NCBI GenBank assembly: GCA_020438485.1
Contig: JAGQUM010000010.1
Location: 1 to 48,502, forward strand
Length of the DNA stretch: 48,502 nt
DNA from: Thermoleophilia bacterium
Lineage (GTDB): Bacteria > Actinomycetota > Thermoleophilia > Miltoncostaeales > Miltoncostaeaceae
Direction of reading: 5' to 3'
In this document: positions 4,877 to 48,502 of the stretch, piece by piece
How positions within the stretch are numbered: position 1 is the first letter of the stretch
Layout: every line of letters begins with the position of its first letter
Position numbers and translations under genes: made by a program
The notes under the pieces: generated by a model
Databases searched by the model: none
Told to the model about the DNA's origin: nothing
Seen by the model: only the letters and a program-made list of their open reading frames with translations

Positions 4877-5587
4877 ATGGCTCAGGTGGCGATCCCCATG
4901 AGGACCACCGACAGGACGAGCGACCGGGACGCGATGATCGTGGCGGGCATGCCGCTCGCCCGCGCGCTCGCCCGCCGCTACGAGCACCGCGGCGAACCAC
5001 TCGACGACCTCGAGCAGGCCGCGATGATCGGGCTCATCAAGGCGGTCGACGGGTTCGACCCCGCGCGGGGCGGCGACTTCCGCTCGTTCGCCACGCCCAC
5101 CATTCTCGGCGAGATCCGCCGGCACTTCCGCGACCGGACGTGGTCGATGCGGGTGCCCCGCGGTGTGAAGGAGAACCACGCGCGCGTGGTCGCCGTCACC
5201 GGCGAGCTCACCCAGGCGCTCGGCCGGGCGCCCACCGTGGCCGAGATCGCGGGTGACTGCGACCTCTCCGAGGAGGCCGTGCTGGACGCCGTGGGCGCCC
5301 ACACCGCGTACCGCCCCGACTCGCTGTCGTGGACGGGTCCCGACGACGATGCCGACGAGGTGGACATCGCCGTGGCCGACCCCGGCTATCGCCAGGCCGA
5401 GGCGCGCGCGGACCTCAGCGGCCCGCTGGCGGCGCTGGCCCCGCGCGAGCGGCTCATCATCCACCTGCGCTTCCACCGCGGGCTGGCCCAGTCGGAGATC
5501 GCCGCCATCGTCGGCGTGTCGCAGATGCACGTCTCGCGGCTCATCGCCCGCTCCCTCGAGCGGATGCGCGAGGCCGGGGCGTGGTGA
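4877..5587 (+). CDS. SigB/SigF/SigG-family RNA polymerase sigma factor
   Basis: This 236-residue stress or developmental sigma factor has three regions. Region 2 contains LDDLEQAAMIGLIKAVDGFD and then FRSFATPTILGEIRRHFRDR, the SigF-group core-binding and -10 recognition helices. Region 3 follows (VPRGVKENHARV, then LTQALGRAPTVAEIA). Region 4 contains LAPRERLIIHLRFHRGLAQS with a helix-turn-helix in SEIAAIVGVSQMHVSRLIARS for -35 contact. The ATG at 4877 is preceded by GAGG. The stop overlaps the next gene, whose product resembles the ATPase-fold anti-sigma proteins that pair with this sigma class. The regulon cannot be read here, and no obvious SigF-type promoter was found in the window. Confidence 0.9.
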   Translation: MAQVAIPMRTTDRTSDRDAMIVAGMPLARALARRYEHRGEPLDDLEQAAMIGLIKAVDGFDPARGGDFRSFATPTILGEIRRHFRDRTWSMRVPRGVKENHARVVAVTGELTQALGRAPTVAEIAGDCDLSEEAVLDAVGAHTAYRPDSLSWTGPDDDADEVDIAVADPGYRQAEARADLSGPLAALAPRERLIIHLRFHRGLAQSEIAAIVGVSQMHVSRLIARSLERMREAGAW

Positions 5588-6028: not shown

Positions 6029-8454
6029 CACCGCGTCCGAATCCCCTCGCCGTGCGCCGCGCCGCCGCGCTGGCGATCTCGGGCGGCCTCGCCGTGGCGG
6101 GACTCATCGGCGCCTCGTTCACCGACGTCGCCCGCCACACGGGAGTCCCCGCGGTCGTCATCGTGGGCGCACTGGTGTGCCTGTTCGCACTGGCCGAGTG
6201 GACCAAGGTACACATCGAGGTCCGCCGCCACGCTCTGTCCGTCTCGCTGGGCGACTTCCCCGTCATCATCGGCGTGTTCACGGTGTCGCCGTGGCTCGTG
6301 CTGGCCGCGAACATCGCGGGCACGGGGGTCGTGCAATTGGCCCGCCGCCTGGAGGGCCACAAGATGGCCTTCAACCTGGGCGTGGGGGCGATGGAGGTCG
6401 GCATCGCAGGCCTGATCTGCACGCTGCTGACGCGCGACGCGGGGGTGGCGTTCTGGGCGGCGGCCATCGTCGCCGTCTTCGTGGTGGGGCTCGTGGGTAC
6501 TGCCGCGGTGCTGACGGTCATCTCGTTCCTCGACGCCCGGCCGACGCGCATGGAGATGGCCGGGATGGCGGCGTCTGTCGCGGCCTCGGGCCTGACGTGC
6601 GCCACGCTCGCGTCCTGGGCGGTGCTCGGGCTGACCGGTGGCTGGTCCGGGATGCTTCTGCTGACGGTCGCGTCCGCCGCGATGTTCCTGGCGTTCCGCT
6701 CGTACGCGCTCCTCGTGCGCGACCGGCGCGACCAGGGAGCGGTGCTCGACGCGGCACGTCGCATGGGCGAGATGGAGGATGAGGACGGCGTCTACGCCCG
6801 GCTGTGCGAGAGCGCGGCCCGGCTGGCCGGGGCCGAGATCTCGCAGGTCTGGCTGGCCGACTCCGGCGAGCAGTTGCCGTGGGAAACCGCCCGGCTGGTG
6901 GCCCACGGGACGCGTGAGCCGGGCGAGCACCAGTGGCTCACCCAGCACGCGTTCCGCGACGCGTTGGTCGTTCCGGTGGAGTTCGACGGCGTCCGCCAGG
7001 GCACGCTGGTGGTGGCCAACCGCCTTGCACGGGCGGGGACGTTCAACACCAACGACCTCAACCTGGTCCACACGCTGGTCACGCACGCGGTGGCGCTGCT
7101 CCGCAACCACACGTTGTCGCACCGCCTGCTGTTCGAGGCGACGCACGACCCCCTGACGGGCCTGCCCAACCGCGCGGCGTTCTCGACGGCCGTTGAGCGG
7201 GTGCTGCTGCGCCGCGACACCGACGACACGCTGTCGGCGGTGCTTCTGGTCGACCTCGACCGCTTCAAGGAGATCAACGACATCCTGGGACACGCGGCGG
7301 GCGACAGGGTGCTGTCGGCGGTGGCCGACCGCCTGGCACGCGCCGTACCCGACGACGCGGTGCTCTCACGCTTCGGCGGCGACGAGTTCGCCGTGCTGCT
7401 GCCCTCGGCGCGCGACGCCCGCGAGGTGGAAGCCCTCGCCACCCGCCTGACGGCGGCGCTCGAGCCGCCGGTCCGCGTTGCGGACTCGGTGATCGACGTC
7501 GCGGCGTCCGTGGGCATCGCCGGCGTCTTCGCGCCCGACATCGACCCCCCGACGCTCATCCGCCATGTGGACATCGCGGTGTCGGCCGCCAAGGCGCGCG
7601 ACGCGTCGTTCGCCTGGTACGCGGCGCGCGACGATCAGGCGGGTCACGAGCGCCTGGGGCTGGCCAGCCAGCTGCGCCGCGCGGTCGAGGACGACGTCAT
7701 CGACGTGCACTTCCAGCCCCAGGTCTCCGTGCTCGACGGACGCGTGGTGGGTTTCGAGGCGCTGGCTCGCTGGAATCCCGTCGGCCGCGGGACGGTACCG
7801 CCGCAGGAATTCATCCCCCTTGCCGATCAGACCGGTCTGATCACCCCGCTGACGAAGCGGGTGCTGACGAGGGCCCTGTCCGAGTGCCTGCGCTGGCCCG
7901 CGGACGTCGGGGTGTCCGTGAACGTGACGGCCCGGCAGCTGAGGGAGCCCGATCTGGCCGACCGCGTGGCGAGGGCGATGAACGAGGTCGGGTTCCCCCC
8001 CGAGAGGCTCACGCTGGAGTTGACCGAGGACAGCGTGATGGGCGCCGGCCAGGACGACCTCACGCCGCTTCACCGCCTCCGCGAGCGGGGCGTGCGCCTG
8101 GCGATCGACGACTTCGGCACGGGGTATTCGTCGTTCGCGTACCTGCGCAGCCTGCCCGTGCACGAGGTGAAGATCGACAAGTCCTTCATGCCCGGCGTGT
8201 CGGGCGACCCCGGGGCGCTGGCCCTTGTGCAGTCGATCGTCGAGGTCACCCATGTGCTGGGCCTCACGTCGGTGGCCGAGGGCGTGGAGGACGACGGCAC
8301 GATGTTCGCCCTGCGCGACGTCGGGTGCGACATCGCCCAGAGCTACCGGATCGCGCGCCCCATGCCGGCCCGTGAGGTCGCCGCGTGGCTGCGGGAGTGG
8401 GGGCTGGCGCACGCGCCGGGCACCGCCGGCAGCCCCGCACCGACGGGCCGCTGA
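6025..8454 (+). CDS. Membrane GGDEF-EAL (diguanylate cyclase/phosphodiesterase) protein with GAF-like domain
   Basis: This c-di-GMP enzyme of about 809 residues has an N-terminal region of about six to eight hydrophobic segments (residues 10-235), then a GAF-like segment (about 245-365). A GGDEF domain follows with RFGGDEFAVLL intact; the inhibitory RxxD site is missing (VPDD stands there). Last is an EAL domain with GFEALARW, NVTARQL, ELTEDSVM, IDDFGTGYSSF, VKIDKSF and AEGVEDD, so phosphodiesterase residues look complete. The usual QGY near the end is QSY. The ATG at 6025 is preferred; an in-frame ATG at 6007 would add six residues, and both lie in a strong hairpin. The N-terminal sensor resembles that of the protein at 42508-45072, sharing an H-x-E-x-RR...S-x-SL-x-D-x-P pattern. 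Which activity dominates is uncertain. Confidence 0.88.
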   Translation: MAPRPNPLAVRRAAALAISGGLAVAGLIGASFTDVARHTGVPAVVIVGALVCLFALAEWTKVHIEVRRHALSVSLGDFPVIIGVFTVSPWLVLAANIAGTGVVQLARRLEGHKMAFNLGVGAMEVGIAGLICTLLTRDAGVAFWAAAIVAVFVVGLVGTAAVLTVISFLDARPTRMEMAGMAASVAASGLTCATLASWAVLGLTGGWSGMLLLTVASAAMFLAFRSYALLVRDRRDQGAVLDAARRMGEMEDEDGVYARLCESAARLAGAEISQVWLADSGEQLPWETARLVAHGTREPGEHQWLTQHAFRDALVVPVEFDGVRQGTLVVANRLARAGTFNTNDLNLVHTLVTHAVALLRNHTLSHRLLFEATHDPLTGLPNRAAFSTAVERVLLRRDTDDTLSAVLLVDLDRFKEINDILGHAAGDRVLSAVADRLARAVPDDAVLSRFGGDEFAVLLPSARDAREVEALATRLTAALEPPVRVADSVIDVAASVGIAGVFAPDIDPPTLIRHVDIAVSAAKARDASFAWYAARDDQAGHERLGLASQLRRAVEDDVIDVHFQPQVSVLDGRVVGFEALARWNPVGRGTVPPQEFIPLADQTGLITPLTKRVLTRALSECLRWPADVGVSVNVTARQLREPDLADRVARAMNEVGFPPERLTLELTEDSVMGAGQDDLTPLHRLRERGVRLAIDDFGTGYSSFAYLRSLPVHEVKIDKSFMPGVSGDPGALALVQSIVEVTHVLGLTSVAEGVEDDGTMFALRDVGCDIAQSYRIARPMPAREVAAWLREWGLAHAPGTAGSPAPTGR

Positions 8455-39296: not shown

Positions 39297-39462
39297 AAGG
39301 AAGCTCGGGGGGCGGGACGGTTCCCGCCGACGAGCAGCCCTTCACCCGAGGACCACGACGTCGCAAGGAGGCAGGCGACCTGGCTCGTCCCCCGGGCGGG
39401 GGCATCACAGTTGCGGGACAGCGCCGGGATCGCACCGGCTTCGCTGACGCTCCTCACTCACC
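39297..39462 (-). ncRNA. Cobalamin (B12) riboswitch
   Basis: The minus strand carries the conserved core: GAAGCCGGTGCGATCCCGGC (about 39443-39424), then GCTGTCCCGCAACTGTGA (the B12 box with CCCGCNACTGTGA, about 39422-39405), a GC-rich hairpin, then AGCCAGGTCGCCTGCC. This is the standard cobalamin aptamer order. It stands directly before the B12 uptake/salvage operon, so adenosylcobalamin (or a related corrinoid) should repress btuF-C-D-cobU-T-S. The outer limits are approximate. Confidence 0.92.
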
Positions 39463-42507: not shown

Positions 42508-45072
42508 GTGCTCAAACAGTTGGCGAGTGCTCGCGGCGGGGGGCGACCCCGCCTGTCCGGCGTCCACGCCGTGTGGGCGCTCAACGCGGCCATCGCGCTC
42601 GCGTGCGGGCTGCTGCTGGCCGGGCCCGTCCGCCACTACGCGCCGGTCGTCCCCGACACCATCCCGTGGTGGGGCATCGCGGCGTTCATCGCGATCACCG
42701 AGCGCTGGCCCGTTCACCTGGAGTTCCGGCGCAGCGCCCACTCCTTCTCGCTGACCGACATCCCCGTCACGCTGGCGCTGCTGTTCCTCAGCGGCGTCGA
42801 GGGGCCTCTGGCCGTGGCCCTCGGCGGCGGCGTCGCGCTGGCGCTGCGCCGGCTGCCGCCCCTCAAGTTCGTGTTCAACCTGGCGCAGTTCACGTGCGCG
42901 GCGGCCGTCGGCTACGTCGTGATGCACATGATCGCGGGCCACGAACCCGGTTTCGGGCCCACCGTGTGGGTCGCGACGCTGCTCGCGCTGCAGATCGGCG
43001 GCGTGTTCACCATCGTCGCCCTGTCCTGCGCGATGTGGCTGGTGGAGGGGTCGCTCAGCCGCGACGAGATCCGCCAGATGTTCACGATGGACGCCGCGGT
43101 GACGGCCACGAACACCAGCCTCGCGCTGGTGCTGGCGGTCATCATCGTGGTCGAGCCCGCCGCGGCCCCGATCCTGTTGATCCCCATCGTCATCGCGTTC
43201 GTGGCGTATCGCCAGTACGTCGCGGAGCGGCAGCGGCACGAGAAGCTGCAGTTCCTGTACGAGGCCAACCGCGGCCTGGCGGACTCGCGCGACGAGGTCG
43301 CCCACGCCCTCGTGGGGCTCCTGCGCCGGGCGCTCGAGGCGTATCGCTCCGAGCAGGCCGAGGTGCTGCTGTTCTCGGCGGAGGACGACAACCCGCCGCT
43401 TCGCACCAGCCTCGGGGCGGGTGACGAGGAGCACATGGTGCCCGCCGATCCGGCGGGCGCGCAGGCACTGCGCGACCTGCTGGCCGAGCACGGCCGCCCG
43501 CTGATCCTCGAGGAGCCCTTCCCCCCGTCGGTGCGCGCATACCTGACCCAGCGCGGCATCCGTCACGCCATGGTCGCCGAACTGCGGGGCGAGCAGCGCC
43601 AGGTGGGGCTGCTCGTGCTGGCCAACCGCACCGGGTTCGCCCGCCGGTTCACCGACGACGACGTCGCGCTGTTCGAGACGCTGGCCGGCAACGCCAGCGC
43701 CGCGCTGCAGTACGACCGGCTCGAGCAGGCCGTGTCGGATCTGCGCGACCTGCAGGAGAGGCTTCACCATCAGGCCTACCACGACCCGCTGACGGGCCTG
43801 GCGAACCGCGCGCTGTTCCACCAGCACGTCGAGCGGGCCGTGGCCACGGGCAGGGGCACCGGCGTGCTGTTCATCGACCTCGATGACTTCAAGGCCGTCA
43901 ACGACACGCTGGGGCATGCCGTCGGCGACCGGCTGCTGCGCGCCGCGGCCCGTCGCCTGGCCGGGTGCGTGCGGGGTGACGACGTGGTGGCGCGGCTGGG
44001 CGGCGACGAGTTCGCCGTGCTGTGCATGGACGACCACGACGTGGAGGCCATCGGCGTGGGGATCGCCGAGCGTGTGTTGGAGGCGTTCCAGGTGCCCCTC
44101 GCGGTCGCCGCCCACGTGCTGCCGGTGGCGCTCAGCATCGGCATCGCCACCAACCGTCACAGCGACGGGGGCGTGGATCCCCTGCTGCGCGACGCCGACC
44201 TCGCGATGTACCAGGCCAAGGAGTCGGGCAAGGGGCGGTTCGCCCTGTTCAACCCGGAGATGCGCGAGGCGCTCCTGGGCCGGATGGGCCTGCGAGCCGA
44301 ACTGGAGGGGGCCATCGCGAACGACGCGCTGACGGTGCACTTCCAGCCCATCTTCGACATGGAGACCGGGCAAACCGTGGCCGCCGAGGCCCTGGTGCGC
44401 TGGGACCACCCCACCCGCGGCCTGCTGGCGCCGCCGAGCTTCATCCCCCTGGCCGAGGAGACCGGCCTCATCGTGCCGCTGGGCCGGCGCGTGCTGGAGC
44501 ACTCGTGCCGCGAGGGCAGCGCGTGGGCGGATGCCGGCGTGCCCATCGACGTGCACGTGAACCTGTCGGCGCGGGAACTGGAGGACGAGGCCCTCGCCGA
44601 CACCGTCGCCGAGGTGCTGAACGAGACGGACCTGGCGCCCGCGCGGCTCGTCCTGGAGATCACCGAGAGCCTGCTGATGCGCGATCCCGAGCGAGGGGTC
44701 ACGACGCTGGCCGACCTCCGGGCCCTGGGTGTGCGTCTGGCGCTGGACGATTTCGGCACCGGGTACTCGTCTTTGAGCTACCTGCGGACACTTCCCCTGG
44801 ACGTGCTGAAGATCGCGAAGGAGTTCGTGGTGGGCATCGCGGACAACCCCGAGGACGCGGCGTTCGTGCGGCTCATCGTCGACCTGGCGGACACCATCGG
44901 CCTGACGGTGGTGGCCGAGGGCGTCGAGACCGACACGCAGCTGCGGACCCTGCAGGAGCTGCGGTGCGACCAGGGGCAGGGCTTCCTCTACGCCGTGCCG
45001 GTGCCGGTCAGCGAGTGGGACACGCAGGGCGGCCGCAGGGCCCTGCGCGAGCGCTCCTTCAGCGATTTGTAA
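42508..45072 (+). CDS. Membrane GGDEF-EAL protein with altered EAL active site
   Basis: This c-di-GMP-turnover protein of about 854 residues has about eight N-terminal membrane segments (residues 20-245), a GAF-like region (about 265-405), a GGDEF domain with RLGGDEFAVL and an intact inhibitory RxxD (RGDD, five residues before GGDEF), and an EAL domain. AAEALVRW, NLSARELE, LEITESLLM, ALDDFGTGYSSL and AEGVETDT are present, but the KID motif reads LKIAKEFV. That Asp contributes to metal-ion catalysis in studied EAL enzymes, so phosphodiesterase activity is doubtful and net cyclase activity likely. GTG 42508 with AGGG upstream is preferred; GTG 42463 would add 15 residues. The gene ends 57 bp before a c-di-GMP riboswitch. 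Confidence 0.88.
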   Translation: MLKQLASARGGGRPRLSGVHAVWALNAAIALACGLLLAGPVRHYAPVVPDTIPWWGIAAFIAITERWPVHLEFRRSAHSFSLTDIPVTLALLFLSGVEGPLAVALGGGVALALRRLPPLKFVFNLAQFTCAAAVGYVVMHMIAGHEPGFGPTVWVATLLALQIGGVFTIVALSCAMWLVEGSLSRDEIRQMFTMDAAVTATNTSLALVLAVIIVVEPAAAPILLIPIVIAFVAYRQYVAERQRHEKLQFLYEANRGLADSRDEVAHALVGLLRRALEAYRSEQAEVLLFSAEDDNPPLRTSLGAGDEEHMVPADPAGAQALRDLLAEHGRPLILEEPFPPSVRAYLTQRGIRHAMVAELRGEQRQVGLLVLANRTGFARRFTDDDVALFETLAGNASAALQYDRLEQAVSDLRDLQERLHHQAYHDPLTGLANRALFHQHVERAVATGRGTGVLFIDLDDFKAVNDTLGHAVGDRLLRAAARRLAGCVRGDDVVARLGGDEFAVLCMDDHDVEAIGVGIAERVLEAFQVPLAVAAHVLPVALSIGIATNRHSDGGVDPLLRDADLAMYQAKESGKGRFALFNPEMREALLGRMGLRAELEGAIANDALTVHFQPIFDMETGQTVAAEALVRWDHPTRGLLAPPSFIPLAEETGLIVPLGRRVLEHSCREGSAWADAGVPIDVHVNLSARELEDEALADTVAEVLNETDLAPARLVLEITESLLMRDPERGVTTLADLRALGVRLALDDFGTGYSSLSYLRTLPLDVLKIAKEFVVGIADNPEDAAFVRLIVDLADTIGLTVVAEGVETDTQLRTLQELRCDQGQGFLYAVPVPVSEWDTQGGRRALRERSFSDL

Positions 45073-45108
45073 AGACGCGCACGATGGGTGTGCCCGGCCC
45101 TCAAGTGG

Positions 45109-45123
45109 GGCGGGGTTCCCGCC
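45109..45123 (+). terminator. Hairpin at the start of the riboswitch leader
   Basis: GGCGGG (45109-45114) pairs with CCCGCC (45118-45123) around GTT, 37 nt after the GGDEF-EAL stop. It may end that transcript or be an outer stem of the riboswitch leader. Confidence 0.3.
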
Positions 45124-45129
45124 GAGGAG

Positions 45130-45235
45130 GGACGTGCTGCGTAAGGGGCAAACCCGCCGCGAGGCGGGGACGCAAAGCCAGGGATCTCTCCGGAGACCGC
45201 CCGGCCGCAGGCGGCGCACCGGAGTGAATCCTTCC
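45130..45235 (+). ncRNA. Cyclic di-GMP-I (GEMM) riboswitch
   Basis: The conserved GEMM core is present: GGGGCAAACC (45145-45154), a P2 hairpin CCCGCC-GCGA-GGCGGG capped by a GNRA tetraloop (45153-45168), then GGACGCAAAGCCA (45168-45180). A second stem region rich in CTCCGG/CCGGAG follows and ends near an ACCGGAG (45218-45224). The GGCAAACC plus GACGCAAAGCC pair and the GNRA loop are hallmarks of c-di-GMP-I aptamers. It directly precedes the first subtilase gene (GTG 45249), so it should sense c-di-GMP made by GGDEF proteins such as the upstream one. Whether the ligand turns expression on or off, and whether control is at transcription or translation, is not visible. Confidence 0.88.
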
Positions 45236-45248
45236 CTTGGGAGCCTGT

Positions 45249-46790
45249 GTGCCTGGAATCCGCCCCCGTCGTTCCCCCGTCGTCGCCGCCGCGCTCGCCT
45301 GCACCGGGGCGCTGGCCGCGTCACCGGCGCTCGCCGCACCCTCCTCAACCGGCGCGGGCGTCGAGACGATCGTCCAGATGAATCCCGGCACCACGCCCGC
45401 GCAGGGTCGCGCGGTCGTCGCGCGCCACGGCGGGAGCGTGATCGGCGAGGTCCCGATCATCCACGGCCTCGTCGCCCGCGTCCCGTCCCCCCGGCTGGCC
45501 GGGCTGCGCCGCGAGGCCGCGATCCGGGCCGCCACCCGCAACGGCCGCGTGGCCGCCACGGCGGGGGTGAGCACCAGGAACCTCCGGACGGCCTACCCTC
45601 TGACCGTGGACGCGCCGGTCGCGTGGAGCCCCGCCTGGGGCTCCGTCACGGGCAGGGGTGTCGGCGTGGCGGTGATCGACACCGGCGTCGACGGCGGCAT
45701 CGTCGACTTCCAGCGCTCGTCCTGGGATCGCCAGTCCCGGGTCGTGGCCGCCGTGCGGACCAACCCCAACGCCACGACCGTCGACGACGAGTACGGCCAC
45801 GGCACGCACGTCGCCGGGATCATCGCCGGCAACGGCAACAACCGCACCGACGCGTTCGCGGGCCGCTACGTCGGCATCGCCCCCAGGGCCAACCTGGTCT
45901 CGGTGAAGGTGTCCGACGATCAGGGGATCGCGACAGTGCTCGACGTGATCTACGGGCTGCAGTTCGCCGTGGACATGAAGGACAGGTACAACATCCGGGT
46001 CATCAACATGTCGCTCACGTCGACCGTGGCGGGGCCGGCGTCGACCGACCCGCTGAACGCGGCGACCGAGGAGGCCTGGAACCGCGGCATCGTCGTGGTC
46101 GCCGCGGCCGGGAACAGGGGTTCGGGCGACGGCGCCGTCGACTACGCCCCCGGAAACGACCCGTTCGTCATCACGGTGGGCGCGACGGACGACCAGGACA
46201 CGAGCACCCGCAGCGACGACACCGTCGCCTCGTGGTCCAGCGCGGGGACGACGCAGGAAGGGGTGGCGAAGCCCGAGATCTACGCGCCGGGGGCGCACAT
46301 GGTCTCGACGCTCGCCCCGGGCAGCGACTTCACCCGCACGTGCCCGACGTGCGTCGTCGACGACCAGTACATCCGTGCGGGCGGCACGTCCATGTCGGCG
46401 CCGGTGGTCTCGGGCATCGTCGCGCTGATGCTCGAGCGGCGCCCGTGGCTGACGCCGAACCAGGTGAAGGGCACGCTGATCGCCACGTCCGAGCGGGTGG
46501 CGGACGACGCGGTTCCCGAGGCCGACGCGGCCCGGGCCGTCTACGCGTCCGGCGTCTACTCGTCCAATCGGGAGCTGGCGCCGAACGCGTTGATCGACCC
46601 CGCCACCGGAGGTGTCGATCCCGCCCGCTCATCGTGGAGCCGGTCCTCGTGGAGCAGCGCGCCCGACCCGAACGCCGGCTGGTCCCGGTCGTCGTGGAGC
46701 TGTGAGTGCTCGCTGAACCCCGACGGCAGCGTCGACCCCACGTGGTCGAGCTGGAGCCGGTCCTCCTGGTCCACGTCGTGGTCGAAGTAG
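45249..46790 (+). CDS. Secreted S8 (subtilisin-like) protease with Trp-Ser repeat tail, copy 1
   Basis: This 513-residue exported protease has a signal peptide (RRSPVVAAALACTGALAASP then ALAA), a short inhibitor-like propeptide (about residues 37-110), and a subtilisin domain with catalytic Asp144 (VAVIDTGVDG), His184 (EYGHGTHVAGIIAGNG) and Ser381 (GGTSMSAPVVSG). The last 58 residues are a repeat tail: WSRSSWSS, WSRSSWSCECSL and TWSSWSRSSWSTSWSK, with a CxCSL-x-P-DGSVDP block between. GTG 45249 has GGGAG 5 nt upstream; a TTG at 45237 is an unlikely alternative. It follows the c-di-GMP riboswitch and lies 28 bp before its paralog, so both are probably cotranscribed. Substrates are unknown. Confidence 0.9.
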   Translation: MPGIRPRRSPVVAAALACTGALAASPALAAPSSTGAGVETIVQMNPGTTPAQGRAVVARHGGSVIGEVPIIHGLVARVPSPRLAGLRREAAIRAATRNGRVAATAGVSTRNLRTAYPLTVDAPVAWSPAWGSVTGRGVGVAVIDTGVDGGIVDFQRSSWDRQSRVVAAVRTNPNATTVDDEYGHGTHVAGIIAGNGNNRTDAFAGRYVGIAPRANLVSVKVSDDQGIATVLDVIYGLQFAVDMKDRYNIRVINMSLTSTVAGPASTDPLNAATEEAWNRGIVVVAAAGNRGSGDGAVDYAPGNDPFVITVGATDDQDTSTRSDDTVASWSSAGTTQEGVAKPEIYAPGAHMVSTLAPGSDFTRTCPTCVVDDQYIRAGGTSMSAPVVSGIVALMLERRPWLTPNQVKGTLIATSERVADDAVPEADAARAVYASGVYSSNRELAPNALIDPATGGVDPARSSWSRSSWSSAPDPNAGWSRSSWSCECSLNPDGSVDPTWSSWSRSSWSTSWSK

Positions 46791-46818
46791 CCCGCGGCGC
46801 CACGGGAACGGGCCCCCG

Positions 46819-48414
46819 ATGACCCCTCGCCGCCGCGCGACCCTGTCCGTCGCCGCCGCCGTGGGCGCTCTCGCCGCCGCCACCGCGCCCGGCACGGCCG
46901 CCGCGGCCACCGAGTCGATCGTCCTCATGGCGCCCGGCGTCTCGCCCGTCGCCGCGCGGCACGTCATCGCCGCCTCGGGCGGCACCATCACCCGGCGCGT
47001 GCCCATGATCAACGCGTACGGCGTGCGCGCGTCGGCCGCCGCCACCGCCGGCCTCGCCCGCGCGGGCGGCGTGCGGAGCGTGACGCCGAACGTCGCGTGG
47101 CGGCCCGCCGGCGCCACGACCAGGCCCGCGCCGGCATCCGGGACGGCCGGCATTGCGGCGAAGTCCGCGCCCGCCCCCAGCCCGACGGCGACCTCGCCGC
47201 TGGTCACGTCGTTCAACGAGTCGCTCTCGACGCCCGCCGCGTGGACCTCGGCGTACAGGGCCACCGGCAAGGGGGTGGGTGTCGCGGTCATCGACACCGG
47301 CGTCGCCGGAGGCGTCCCCGATTTCCGCACCTCGCGCACGGACCCCACGTCGCGCGTCGTCGCGTCGGTCGTGACGAACCCGCATGCCACCACGGCCACC
47401 GACGCCTACGGTCACGGCACCCACGTCGCGGGTCTCATCGCCGGCAACGGCAGCGCCCGCCCATTCGGGGATCCGCTCGCCGGGAGGTATTCCGGCACGG
47501 CGCCCGAGGCCCAGATCGTCTCGGTCAAGGCCTCCGACGACCATGGCAACGCCACGCTGCTCGACGTCATCTACGGCCTTCAGTTCGTCGTTGACAACAG
47601 GGCCGCGTACAACATCCGCGTCGTCAACCTCAGCCTCGAGTCGTCCGCTCCACAGCCGTACCGCGTGGACCCGCTCGACGCGGCGGTGGAGGCCGCGTGG
47701 CGCAGGGGCATCGTGGTCGTCGCCGCCGCCGGCAACCGCGGGACGGCGACCGACGCCGTCATGTACGCCCCGGGCAACGACCCCTACGTGCTGAGCGTGG
47801 GCGCCGTCGACGACAGGGGTACCAAGTCCCCGAGCGATGACACGCTGGCCACGTGGTCCAGCCGCGGCGTCACGCAGGACGGGGTGAGAAAGCCGGAGGT
47901 GCTGGCGCCCGGTGCGCGGATGGTGAGCGTGCTCGCCCCCGGCAGTGACTTCGCGACGCTGTGCCCGTCGTGCGTGGTCTCGGGCCAGTACATCCGCATC
48001 GGCGGCACGTCGATGTCGGCGGCCGTCGCGTCCGGCGTCGTGGCCGACATCCTCCAGGCGCACCCCACGTGGACTCCCGACCAGGTGAAGGCCGCGATCG
48101 TGGGGACGACCCGGACCGTGGCGGGGACCGGACCCGAGATCTCCGCGACCGCAGCGATCAAGGCCGACCCCGACAAGCTGCCGAGGGTGAACGTGGGCCT
48201 GACCGCGAGCACGCTGCTGGACGCGTCCGGTTCCATCGACTGGACCAGGGCGTCGTGGAGCAGGGCGTCGTGGAGCAGGGCCGCCGACCCGCTGCGGGCG
48301 TCGTGGAGCCGGGCCTCCTGGAGCTGCGCGTGCTCGCTCGACGCGTCCGGAGCGGTGGACCCCGCCCGCGCCTCGTGGAGCCGGGCGTCGTGGAGCGCCG
48401 CCTGGGACAAGTAG
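46819..48414 (+). CDS. Secreted S8 (subtilisin-like) protease with Trp-Ser repeat tail, copy 2
   Basis: This 531-residue paralog has the same order as copy 1: a signal peptide (RRRATLSVAAAVGALAAATA then PGTAAAA), a propeptide and Pro/Ala-rich linker (PAPASGTAGIAAKSAPAPSP), and a subtilisin domain with Asp159 (VAVIDTGVAG), His199 (AYGHGTHVAGLIAGNG) and Ser398 (GGTSMSAAVASG). The tail (about residues 473-531) is RASWSRASWSRAAD, LRASWSRASWSCACSL and ARASWSRASWSAAWDK. It differs from copy 1 by R-A for R-S and by a longer propeptide linker. It is probably expressed from the same riboswitch-controlled transcript. A GC hairpin follows its stop. Confidence 0.9.
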   Translation: MTPRRRATLSVAAAVGALAAATAPGTAAAATESIVLMAPGVSPVAARHVIAASGGTITRRVPMINAYGVRASAAATAGLARAGGVRSVTPNVAWRPAGATTRPAPASGTAGIAAKSAPAPSPTATSPLVTSFNESLSTPAAWTSAYRATGKGVGVAVIDTGVAGGVPDFRTSRTDPTSRVVASVVTNPHATTATDAYGHGTHVAGLIAGNGSARPFGDPLAGRYSGTAPEAQIVSVKASDDHGNATLLDVIYGLQFVVDNRAAYNIRVVNLSLESSAPQPYRVDPLDAAVEAAWRRGIVVVAAAGNRGTATDAVMYAPGNDPYVLSVGAVDDRGTKSPSDDTLATWSSRGVTQDGVRKPEVLAPGARMVSVLAPGSDFATLCPSCVVSGQYIRIGGTSMSAAVASGVVADILQAHPTWTPDQVKAAIVGTTRTVAGTGPEISATAAIKADPDKLPRVNVGLTASTLLDASGSIDWTRASWSRASWSRAADPLRASWSRASWSCACSLDASGAVDPARASWSRASWSAAWDK

Positions 48415-48449: not shown

Positions 48450-48460
48450 CTGCCCGGGAG

Positions 48461-48502
48461 AGCCGGCGAGGGGACTCGAACCCCTGACCTGCTGCTTACA
48501 AG
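48461..48502 (-). tRNA. tRNA-Thr (anticodon TGT), 3' part, cut by the window end
   Basis: The minus strand shows loop CTTGTAA (anticodon TGT, reading ACA) at the window edge, the 3' side of its stem, a short variable region AGGTC, T-arm AGGGG TTCGAGT CCCCT and acceptor 3' strand CGCCGGC plus discriminator T. The 5' half is outside the window. Confidence 0.85.

What the first reader, a model, noticed from the sequence alone, without database searches (positions are those of the whole stretch)
42508..48414. Self-contained c-di-GMP circuit: GGDEF-EAL enzyme, c-di-GMP-I riboswitch and tandem secreted proteases
The order is a membrane GGDEF-EAL gene, then within 60 bp a GEMM aptamer (GGCAAACC, GNRA-capped P2, GACGCAAAGCC), then two exported subtilases on what looks like one transcript. 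Seen in sequence: the motifs and the spacing. Known: GEMM-I RNAs bind c-di-GMP and control surface or motility genes in other bacteria. Inferred: a local switch in which c-di-GMP controls protease secretion, perhaps remodelling biofilm or surface proteins. I know of no described actinobacterial system pairing this riboswitch with Trp-Ser-tailed subtilases.
Basis: partly seen in the sequence, partly recalled or inferred. Interest (0 to 1): 0.85.

Follow-up and report, generated by a model that had tools for sequence, protein, structure and literature searches.

The report
c-di-GMP riboswitch before secreted proteases
A little-studied soil and water bacterium carries a real RNA sensor for the signal c-di-GMP in front of two exported proteases; related bacteria keep the pairing, and the same signal may also act on the promoter through a protein switch, so one signal could control the gene twice.

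Summary
Window 45137-45212 holds a c-di-GMP-I riboswitch aptamer (Rfam 52.0 bits, cut-off 35) that keeps the three ligand-contact bases. It lies 61 nt after an intact GGDEF-EAL gene and 37 nt before two exported subtilases. The structure is supported by strong covariation in 60 relatives from the class (Thermoleophilia).

The arrangement is conserved in the sister genome. The riboswitch-subtilase pairing recurs in two further lineages, including Solirubrobacter soli, always with Trp-every-5 C-terminal tails. In the class most such riboswitches precede exported proteins or pilins.

"Self-contained circuit" is not supported: the genome has at least nine GGDEF-EAL genes.

New here: class aptamers are preceded by WhiG/sigma-28-type promoters at 90 times the background density. 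The window genome encodes WhiG and single-motif RsiG, whose homologues form a c-di-GMP-dependent sigma/anti-sigma pair. So c-di-GMP may act on this mRNA twice, at promoter and leader. The window's own promoter is a weak match, and its aptamer P1 junction departs from the norm. Ligand binding, switch direction and protease targets are untested. Closest precedent: the C. difficile class I riboswitch controlling protease ZmpI. Verdict: new variant of a known kind.

The parts
42508..45072 (+). GGDEF-EAL protein, 854 aa: about 5 N-terminal TM-like segments, GAF, GGDEF with I-site RGDD, EAL with EALVRW/DDFGTG; both domains look intact
   Evidence: Pfam; motifs and TM-like segments; 69% homologue at the same place in G011
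45100..45128 (+). WhiG/sigma-28-like promoter: CTCAAG 45100-45105, GCCGAG 45121-45126 (degenerate -10)
   Evidence: class promoter pattern; site ranks 10th in both strands of the window with a PWM trained without the own family; homologous site in G011 scores 17.0 bits
45134..45140 (+). 5' strand of P1 (GUGCUGC), pairs with 45211-45217 (GCGGCGC), 7 bp incl. 2 G-U
45137..45212 (+). c-di-GMP-I riboswitch aptamer; ligand-site equivalents G20=45147, A47=45174, C92=45208
   Evidence: Rfam RF01051 52.0 bits; alignment A1; contact residues PMC4744006, PMC3764141
45206..45212 (+). CGCAGGC: may pair with GCCUGUG 45243-45249 over the start codon, or within P1; candidate expression platform
   Evidence: folding (pair probability about 0.3, depends on assumed ends)
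45239..45243 (+). Shine-Dalgarno GGGAG for the first subtilase
   Evidence: sequence; equivalent AGGAG before TTG in G011
45249..46790 (+). SubA: exported S8 subtilase, 513 aa: signal peptide, I9-like prodomain fold (36-102), catalytic D144/H184/S381, C-terminal Trp-pentad tail
   Evidence: Pfam; alignment A3; model
46819..48414 (+). SubB: second exported S8 subtilase, 531 aa, Trp-pentad tail (WSRAS)
   Evidence: Pfam; 55% identical to SubA

Best explanation
The leader of a two-gene operon of exported, Trp-pentad-tailed subtilases carries a c-di-GMP-I riboswitch. Shown: a significant covariance score, conserved ligand-contact bases, covariation in the class, conserved gene order in the sister genome, and the same riboswitch-subtilase pairing in two other lineages. 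Inferred: transcription starts about 10 nt before the aptamer from a WhiG-type promoter; c-di-GMP binding forms P1 and thereby changes access to the Shine-Dalgarno/start region, so translation of the proteases follows the cell's c-di-GMP level. Also inferred: c-di-GMP acts a second time on the same transcription unit, because RsiG holds WhiG when c-di-GMP is high. The adjacent GGDEF-EAL enzyme is one of several contributors to the pool and may couple locally. Direction (ON or OFF) is unresolved.
For: Rfam score. Covariation: 96.3% of cells paired, 16 pairs changed on both sides, score 0.472 against 0.200 shuffled, 0 of 500. Ligand bases kept (PMC4744006). Order kept in G011. Subtilase directly 3' of the aptamer in a second family, f2, in Solirubrobacter soli and S. 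pratensis and in four genus-g81 genomes by coordinates (cmscan on two of them). 15 of 69 downstream proteins surveyed are S8, most others pilins, glycosidase-like, CAP or other exported proteins. Promoter element 2.70/kb upstream of aptamers against 0.030/kb elsewhere, -35 at a fixed spacing of 19-21. WhiG equivalog and RsiG PF22802 in the genome. In Chloroflexi genomes that carry the riboswitch, all 13 full-length (one partly degraded) GGDEF-EAL homologues have an aptamer 3' of them, against 0 of 17 domain-only ones.
Against: No binding, expression or TSS data. The window aptamer alone among 60 has A instead of C after C92, and with G011 has G instead of the near-invariant A at column 9; a 5-bp helix CUGCG/CGCAG can trap C92. 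The window's -10 (GCCGAG) is degenerate: with -35 TCAA it has 3 mismatches to TAAA/GCCGATAA, beyond the 2 allowed in PMC8325347. Folding gives conflicting directions. 15 full-length GGDEF-EAL homologues in other Actinomycetota have no riboswitch nearby. Close SubA relatives in G213, G329 and G384 showed no riboswitch at Rfam's cut-off in the flanks held.
Confidence: 0.66

Rival explanations
1. The window's aptamer is decaying: the junction change next to C92 weakens or abolishes ligand binding, and the subtilases are now controlled only at the promoter.
For: Only sequence of 60 with A at column 81; shares a rare G at column 9; score 52 against roughly 60-83 for the class hits listed. Competing 5-bp helix uses C92. 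No riboswitch found near several subtilase relatives.
Against: G20, A47, C92 kept; P2, P1b and P3 core kept; a 7-bp P1 is still available in a shifted register; the sister genome keeps CC with a 5-bp P1.
Confidence: 0.17
2. The aptamer is intercistronic in one long GGDEF-EAL-subtilase transcript, with no promoter of its own; the enzyme and its output are co-expressed.
For: 61-nt gap, same strand, conserved in G011; no canonical terminator found; weak -10 in the window. In Chloroflexi the same kind of GGDEF-EAL also precedes an aptamer on the same strand.
Against: WhiG-type element at the homologous place in G011 (17.0 bits) and G009 (15.9 bits); the class pattern puts the start just before the aptamer; a GGCGGG-GTT-CCCGCC hairpin lies in the gap.
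Confidence: 0.22
3. The RNA senses another cyclic dinucleotide, such as 3',3'-cGAMP.
For: Variants of this RNA class with altered ligand specificity are known (own knowledge); some relatives (L075, L085, L228) carry A at position 20.
Against: The window has G20 and A47, the c-di-GMP pattern; the genome is rich in GGDEF/EAL enzymes.
Confidence: 0.05

Closest known systems
C. difficile Cdi-1-12 class I riboswitch upstream of ZmpI/PPEP-1 (PMC6200980, PMC6366702)
   Same: c-di-GMP-I aptamer in the leader of an exported protease thought to act on surface proteins
   Different: Zinc metalloprotease, not subtilase; transcription-terminating OFF switch; Firmicute; no WhiG/RsiG layer
V. cholerae Vc1 upstream of gbpA (PMC4744006)
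   Same: c-di-GMP-I riboswitch of an exported protein; c-di-GMP acts at both promoter and leader
   Different: Chitin-binding protein; ON switch; promoter effect not through WhiG-RsiG
RsiG-(c-di-GMP)-WhiG switch of Rubrobacter and Streptomyces (PMC8325347)
   Same: Same sigma and single-motif anti-sigma families encoded here; flagellar-type promoter consensus; pili and GGDEF/EAL genes among targets
   Different: No riboswitch is described as part of that regulon in the passages read; proteases not named as targets there
Mycosin (TIGR03921) and other S8 subtilases
   Same: Catalytic domain; best NCBIfam profile of both proteases
   Different: Scores 138-140 against cut-off 279; Trp-pentad tail

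Membership tests
c-di-GMP-I riboswitch (RF01051) | Covariance-model score above gathering cut-off | tested here: met
   52.0 vs 35 bits
c-di-GMP-I riboswitch (RF01051) | Ligand-contact bases G20, A47, C92 | tested here: met
   45147 G, 45174 A, 45208 C (PMC4744006)
c-di-GMP-I riboswitch (RF01051) | P2/P3 fold supported by covariation in relatives | tested here: met
c-di-GMP-I riboswitch (RF01051) | P1 closing the ligand site in the usual register | tested here: inconclusive
   7-bp P1 only in a register shifted by 2; C after C92 replaced by A
c-di-GMP-I riboswitch (RF01051) | Binds c-di-GMP and alters expression | not testable with these tools
   needs in-line probing or reporter assay
c-di-GMP-I-GGC variant (RF03167) | G at position 47 and score above cut-off | tested here: not met
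   A47; 56.8 vs 59 bits
Peptidase S8 subtilase | Domain score and Asp/His/Ser triad | tested here: met
   181.7 and 167.3 bits vs 21.8; D144, H184, S381 invariant in A3
Mycosin TIGR03921 | Curated score cut-off | tested here: not met
   139.7 and 137.7 vs 278.75
RsiG-WhiG switch (genome level) | WhiG-type sigma and RsiG with E(X)3S(X)2R(X)3[QH](X)3D | tested here: met
   PRK06288 346.9 vs 343; PF22802 68.0 vs 27; EREVSMQRRLLHGRMD; PDB 7lq3 E=4e-8
WhiG promoter (this locus) | TAAA-N15-GCCGATAA with at most 2 mismatches | tested here: not met
   3 mismatches in the window and in G011 by that published criterion; PWM of the class ranks the site 10th in the window

The most novel reading that the evidence does not exclude
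Across Thermoleophilia, c-di-GMP controls an exoprotein regulon (subtilases with Trp-pentad tails, pilins, glycosidase-like and CAP proteins) twice on the same transcription unit: RsiG-(c-di-GMP)-WhiG at the promoter and a c-di-GMP-I riboswitch in the leader starting a few nucleotides downstream. Depending on switch polarity this gives either a sharpened OFF response or a band-pass response to one ligand.
Probability: 0.42. Interest if true: 0.8.

Novelty: new variant of a known kind. Interest (0 to 1): 0.62.

Why it matters
c-di-GMP riboswitches are known mostly from Firmicutes and Proteobacteria. Here they are frequent in a deep actinobacterial class (164 of 399 genomes sampled), point to exported proteases, pilins and glycosidase-like proteins, and sit behind promoters of the type read by WhiG, a sigma factor whose anti-sigma RsiG is itself c-di-GMP-dependent. 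If both layers work, one second messenger gates the same mRNA twice, a logic that can be tested directly in a cultured strain such as Solirubrobacter soli. It also gives a first regulatory clue for a family of subtilases with an unexplained Trp-every-five-residues tail.

Tried and rejected
(1) 'Self-contained circuit': rejected; at least nine GGDEF-EAL matches in the genome. (2) c-di-GMP-I-GGC variant: rejected, A47 present, score under cut-off. (3) Switch direction from folding: three attempts conflict; in the class 6 of 23 leaders lose and 3 gain SD access when the bound fold is imposed. Not used. (4) Trp tail structure: AlphaFold2 model has pLDDT under 50 for 442-513; no fold claim, no fold search run. 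(5) Named-genome scan with the protease found no relatives; replaced by an aptamer DNA pattern. (6) First RsiG motif scan with Gln failed; with His allowed it found the gene. (7) GGDEF-EAL/riboswitch linkage as a universal rule: rejected, 0 of 15 full-length homologues in other Actinomycetota. (8) Sigma-70 promoter and intrinsic terminator scans: nothing. (9) First promoter regex used too narrow a spacing (9 of 89); corrected by aligning on the -10.
Full report
Observation. The three claimed elements are present. Rfam's c-di-GMP-I model matches 45137-45212 on the + strand with 52.0 bits (cut-off 35), and this is the only copy in the 2.58 Mb assembly. The upstream gene (42508-45072) encodes TM-like segments, GAF, GGDEF and EAL with RGDD I-site, GGDEF, EALVRW and DDFGTG motifs kept. 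Two S8 proteases follow at 45249-46790 and 46819-48414. The first start codon is best placed at GTG 45249, with GGGAG 45239-45243; the sister genome has AGGAG before TTG at the equivalent place.

The RNA. In an alignment of 60 aptamers from the same class the P1b/P2/P3 structure is paired in 96.3% of cells; 16 of 21 pairs show changes on both sides; the covariation score is 0.472 against 0.200 in shuffles, none of 500 reaching it, and slid structures fall to about 30-44%. The three bases that contact c-di-GMP in Vc2 (G20, A47, C92; PMC4744006) are G 45147, A 45174 and C 45208. Two departures need mention: column 9 is G (57 of 60 have A; G011 shares the G), and the base after C92 is A in the window alone (59 of 60 have C). 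In Vc2 that C pairs with G14 in P1 (PMC3764141). The window can still close P1 with seven pairs, 45134-45140 with 45211-45217, in a shifted register; a rival helix CUGCG/CGCAG would use C92 itself. The second Rfam model, c-di-GMP-I-GGC, scores 56.8 under its cut-off of 59, and its defining G47 is absent.

Where it comes from. Matching contig lengths tie the sister genome G011 to the MAG KLAP93, and f2 genome G092 to an 'uncultured Thermoleophilia' record. The class is therefore Thermoleophilia. The order holds only 42 sampled genomes, of which three have the riboswitch. In the class 164 of 399 genomes have it, up to ten copies each.

Conservation of the arrangement. G011 keeps GGDEF-EAL (69%), aptamer and one subtilase (65%); SubB is absent there and pgi follows. 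G009, another genus of the family, has the aptamer before a small exported protein, then a GGDEF/HD-type gene. Subtilases directly follow the aptamer in family f2, in Solirubrobacter soli and S. pratensis (50-51% to SubA), and in genus g81, where four genomes each have one subtilase paralogue with an aptamer just 5' of it by coordinates (cmscan confirms two). Relatives without one at the Rfam cut-off exist (G213, G329, G384 and the second g81 paralogues), so the link is common but not fixed.

The proteases. Both carry signal peptides and the Asp/His/Ser triad (D144, H184, S381 of SubA). A low-depth AlphaFold2 model (mean pLDDT 62) is confident only in parts; residues 36-102 fold as a beta-alpha-beta-beta-alpha-beta prodomain of the I9 type (my reading of the element order). 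The tails repeat Trp every five residues: W-S-R-[SA]-S in the window and G011, W-[ST]-[RK]-S-[ST] in Solirubrobacter, and up to a dozen W-T-K-[FY]-A units in f2. The tail is not modelled with confidence. Both proteases resemble mycosins most among NCBIfam models but are far under that cut-off.

What the riboswitches control in the class. A Pfam scan of 69 first downstream proteins gave 15 subtilases, 9 prepilin-type N-termini, 5 GHL15 and 4 GH26 glycosidase-like proteins, 4 CAP proteins, 3 GGDEF proteins and one flagellin, plus two flavin oxidoreductases. The set was chosen from high-scoring aptamers and readable ORFs, so the proportions are not unbiased.

GGDEF-EAL linkage. In Chloroflexi genomes picked because they hold the aptamer, all 13 full-length homologues of the window's GGDEF-EAL (one of them partly degraded) have an aptamer 3' on the same strand, against 0 of 17 domain-only homologues. 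Three of the thirteen (L222, L223, L228) do not match the search pattern and are confirmed by cmscan, so they are not products of the selection. In other Actinomycetota 0 of 15 full-length homologues have one. The pairing thus recurs in two phyla but is not general. In the window genome nine GGDEF-EAL matches at E<=1e-60 exist, so the circuit is not self-contained.

A second c-di-GMP layer. Looking for the promoter, I found that class aptamers are preceded by an element like the flagellar/WhiG promoter. YCGATA occurs in 40 of 89 upstream stretches against 3.4 in shuffles. When sequences are aligned only on the -10, a -35 T[AC]A[AG] appears at 19-21 nt upstream in 26 cases among 55 sequences, against 0-2 at any other spacing. 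The full element has a density of 2.70/kb in the 90 nt before aptamers and 0.030/kb elsewhere in the same loci. With a weight matrix trained without the own family, the homologous sites score 17.0 bits in G011 and 15.9 in G009; the window site (CTCAAG 45100, GCCGAG 45121) scores 12.4 and ranks tenth over both strands of the window. By the published two-mismatch rule (PMC8325347) both genus sites fail by one. The genome encodes a sigma factor over the WhiG equivalog cut-off (346.9 vs 343) whose nearest solved relatives are 6pfj/6pfv, and an 87-aa protein over the Pfam RsiG cut-off (68 vs 27) with one motif EREVSMQRRLLHGRMD and similarity to Rubrobacter RsiG in 7lq2-7lq4 (E about 4e-8). PMC8325347 shows that single-motif RsiG of Rubrobacter and Thermoleophilia binds c-di-GMP and WhiG, and that pili and GGDEF/EAL genes are likely targets. 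The one g12 genome tested, from a genus without riboswitches, has no WhiG over the cut-off. The double control of one transcription unit by one ligand is my inference; no paper in the library joins c-di-GMP riboswitches with WhiG promoters beyond two that merely mention both terms.

Direction. Imposing the bound fold lowers predicted SD access in five of six window constructs but raises SD and start access in G011; over 23 class leaders 6 fall and 3 rise. In both genus members the P1 3' side can pair with the SD/start region, which would favour an ON switch; C. difficile class I switches are mostly OFF and V. cholerae Vc1 is ON (PMC6200980, PMC4744006). I leave it open.

Verdict. A real c-di-GMP-I riboswitch with a conserved exported-protease target, known in principle from C. 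difficile ZmpI, but with a new target family and, class-wide, a likely second c-di-GMP-dependent layer at the promoter. New variant of a known kind.

Noticed in passing
L225:4813 region, L226, L229, L230, L231 and others (Chloroflexi): After GGDEF-EAL and (in most) a membrane-protein ORF, the c-di-GMP-I aptamer is followed by a conserved micro-ORF of about 29-38 aa (VKANLARFTWALMLLASLALTVGAGMRWY-like). A riboswitch-controlled microprotein seems undescribed.
   Followed up: partly
L075, L085, L228 aptamers: A instead of G at the position of G20, a change associated elsewhere with cGAMP-type GEMM variants.
   Followed up: no
upstream of class aptamers (89 stretches): WhiG/sigma-28-type promoter element CT[AC]AAG-N15-GCCGATA, 90-fold enriched; used in the report.
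   Followed up: yes
L067, L068, L070, L071: In family f11 the aptamer precedes an NADH:flavin oxidoreductase, an unusual non-exported target.
   Followed up: no
L037, L040, L047, L053, L059, L080, L147, L155, L157, L175; L035:7283-7900: A family of about 200-250 aa exported proteins ending in [YF][IV]DP.. repeatedly follows the aptamer; no Pfam name established.
   Followed up: partly
window 39379-39439 -: Cobalamin riboswitch aptamer, 35.6 bits, just over the cut-off.
   Followed up: no
window 6913-8376 + and 5000-5572 +: A second GGDEF-EAL gene (43%) and a sigma-70-family stretch (101 bits, under the FliA/WhiG cut-off) in the same contig.
   Followed up: no
window 48460-48502 -: 3' part of a tRNA (reads as tRNA-Thr, TGT, by eye) at the contig end, 45 nt after SubB; cut off, so not called by ARAGORN.
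   Followed up: no
L131 (Chloroflexi): Three aptamer cores within 1.2 kb, at 1776, 2328 and 2954 of the reversed locus.
   Followed up: no
window 45111-45125: Perfect hairpin GGCGGG-GTT-CCCGCC without T-tract between GGDEF-EAL and aptamer; overlaps the promoter-like -10.
   Followed up: partly
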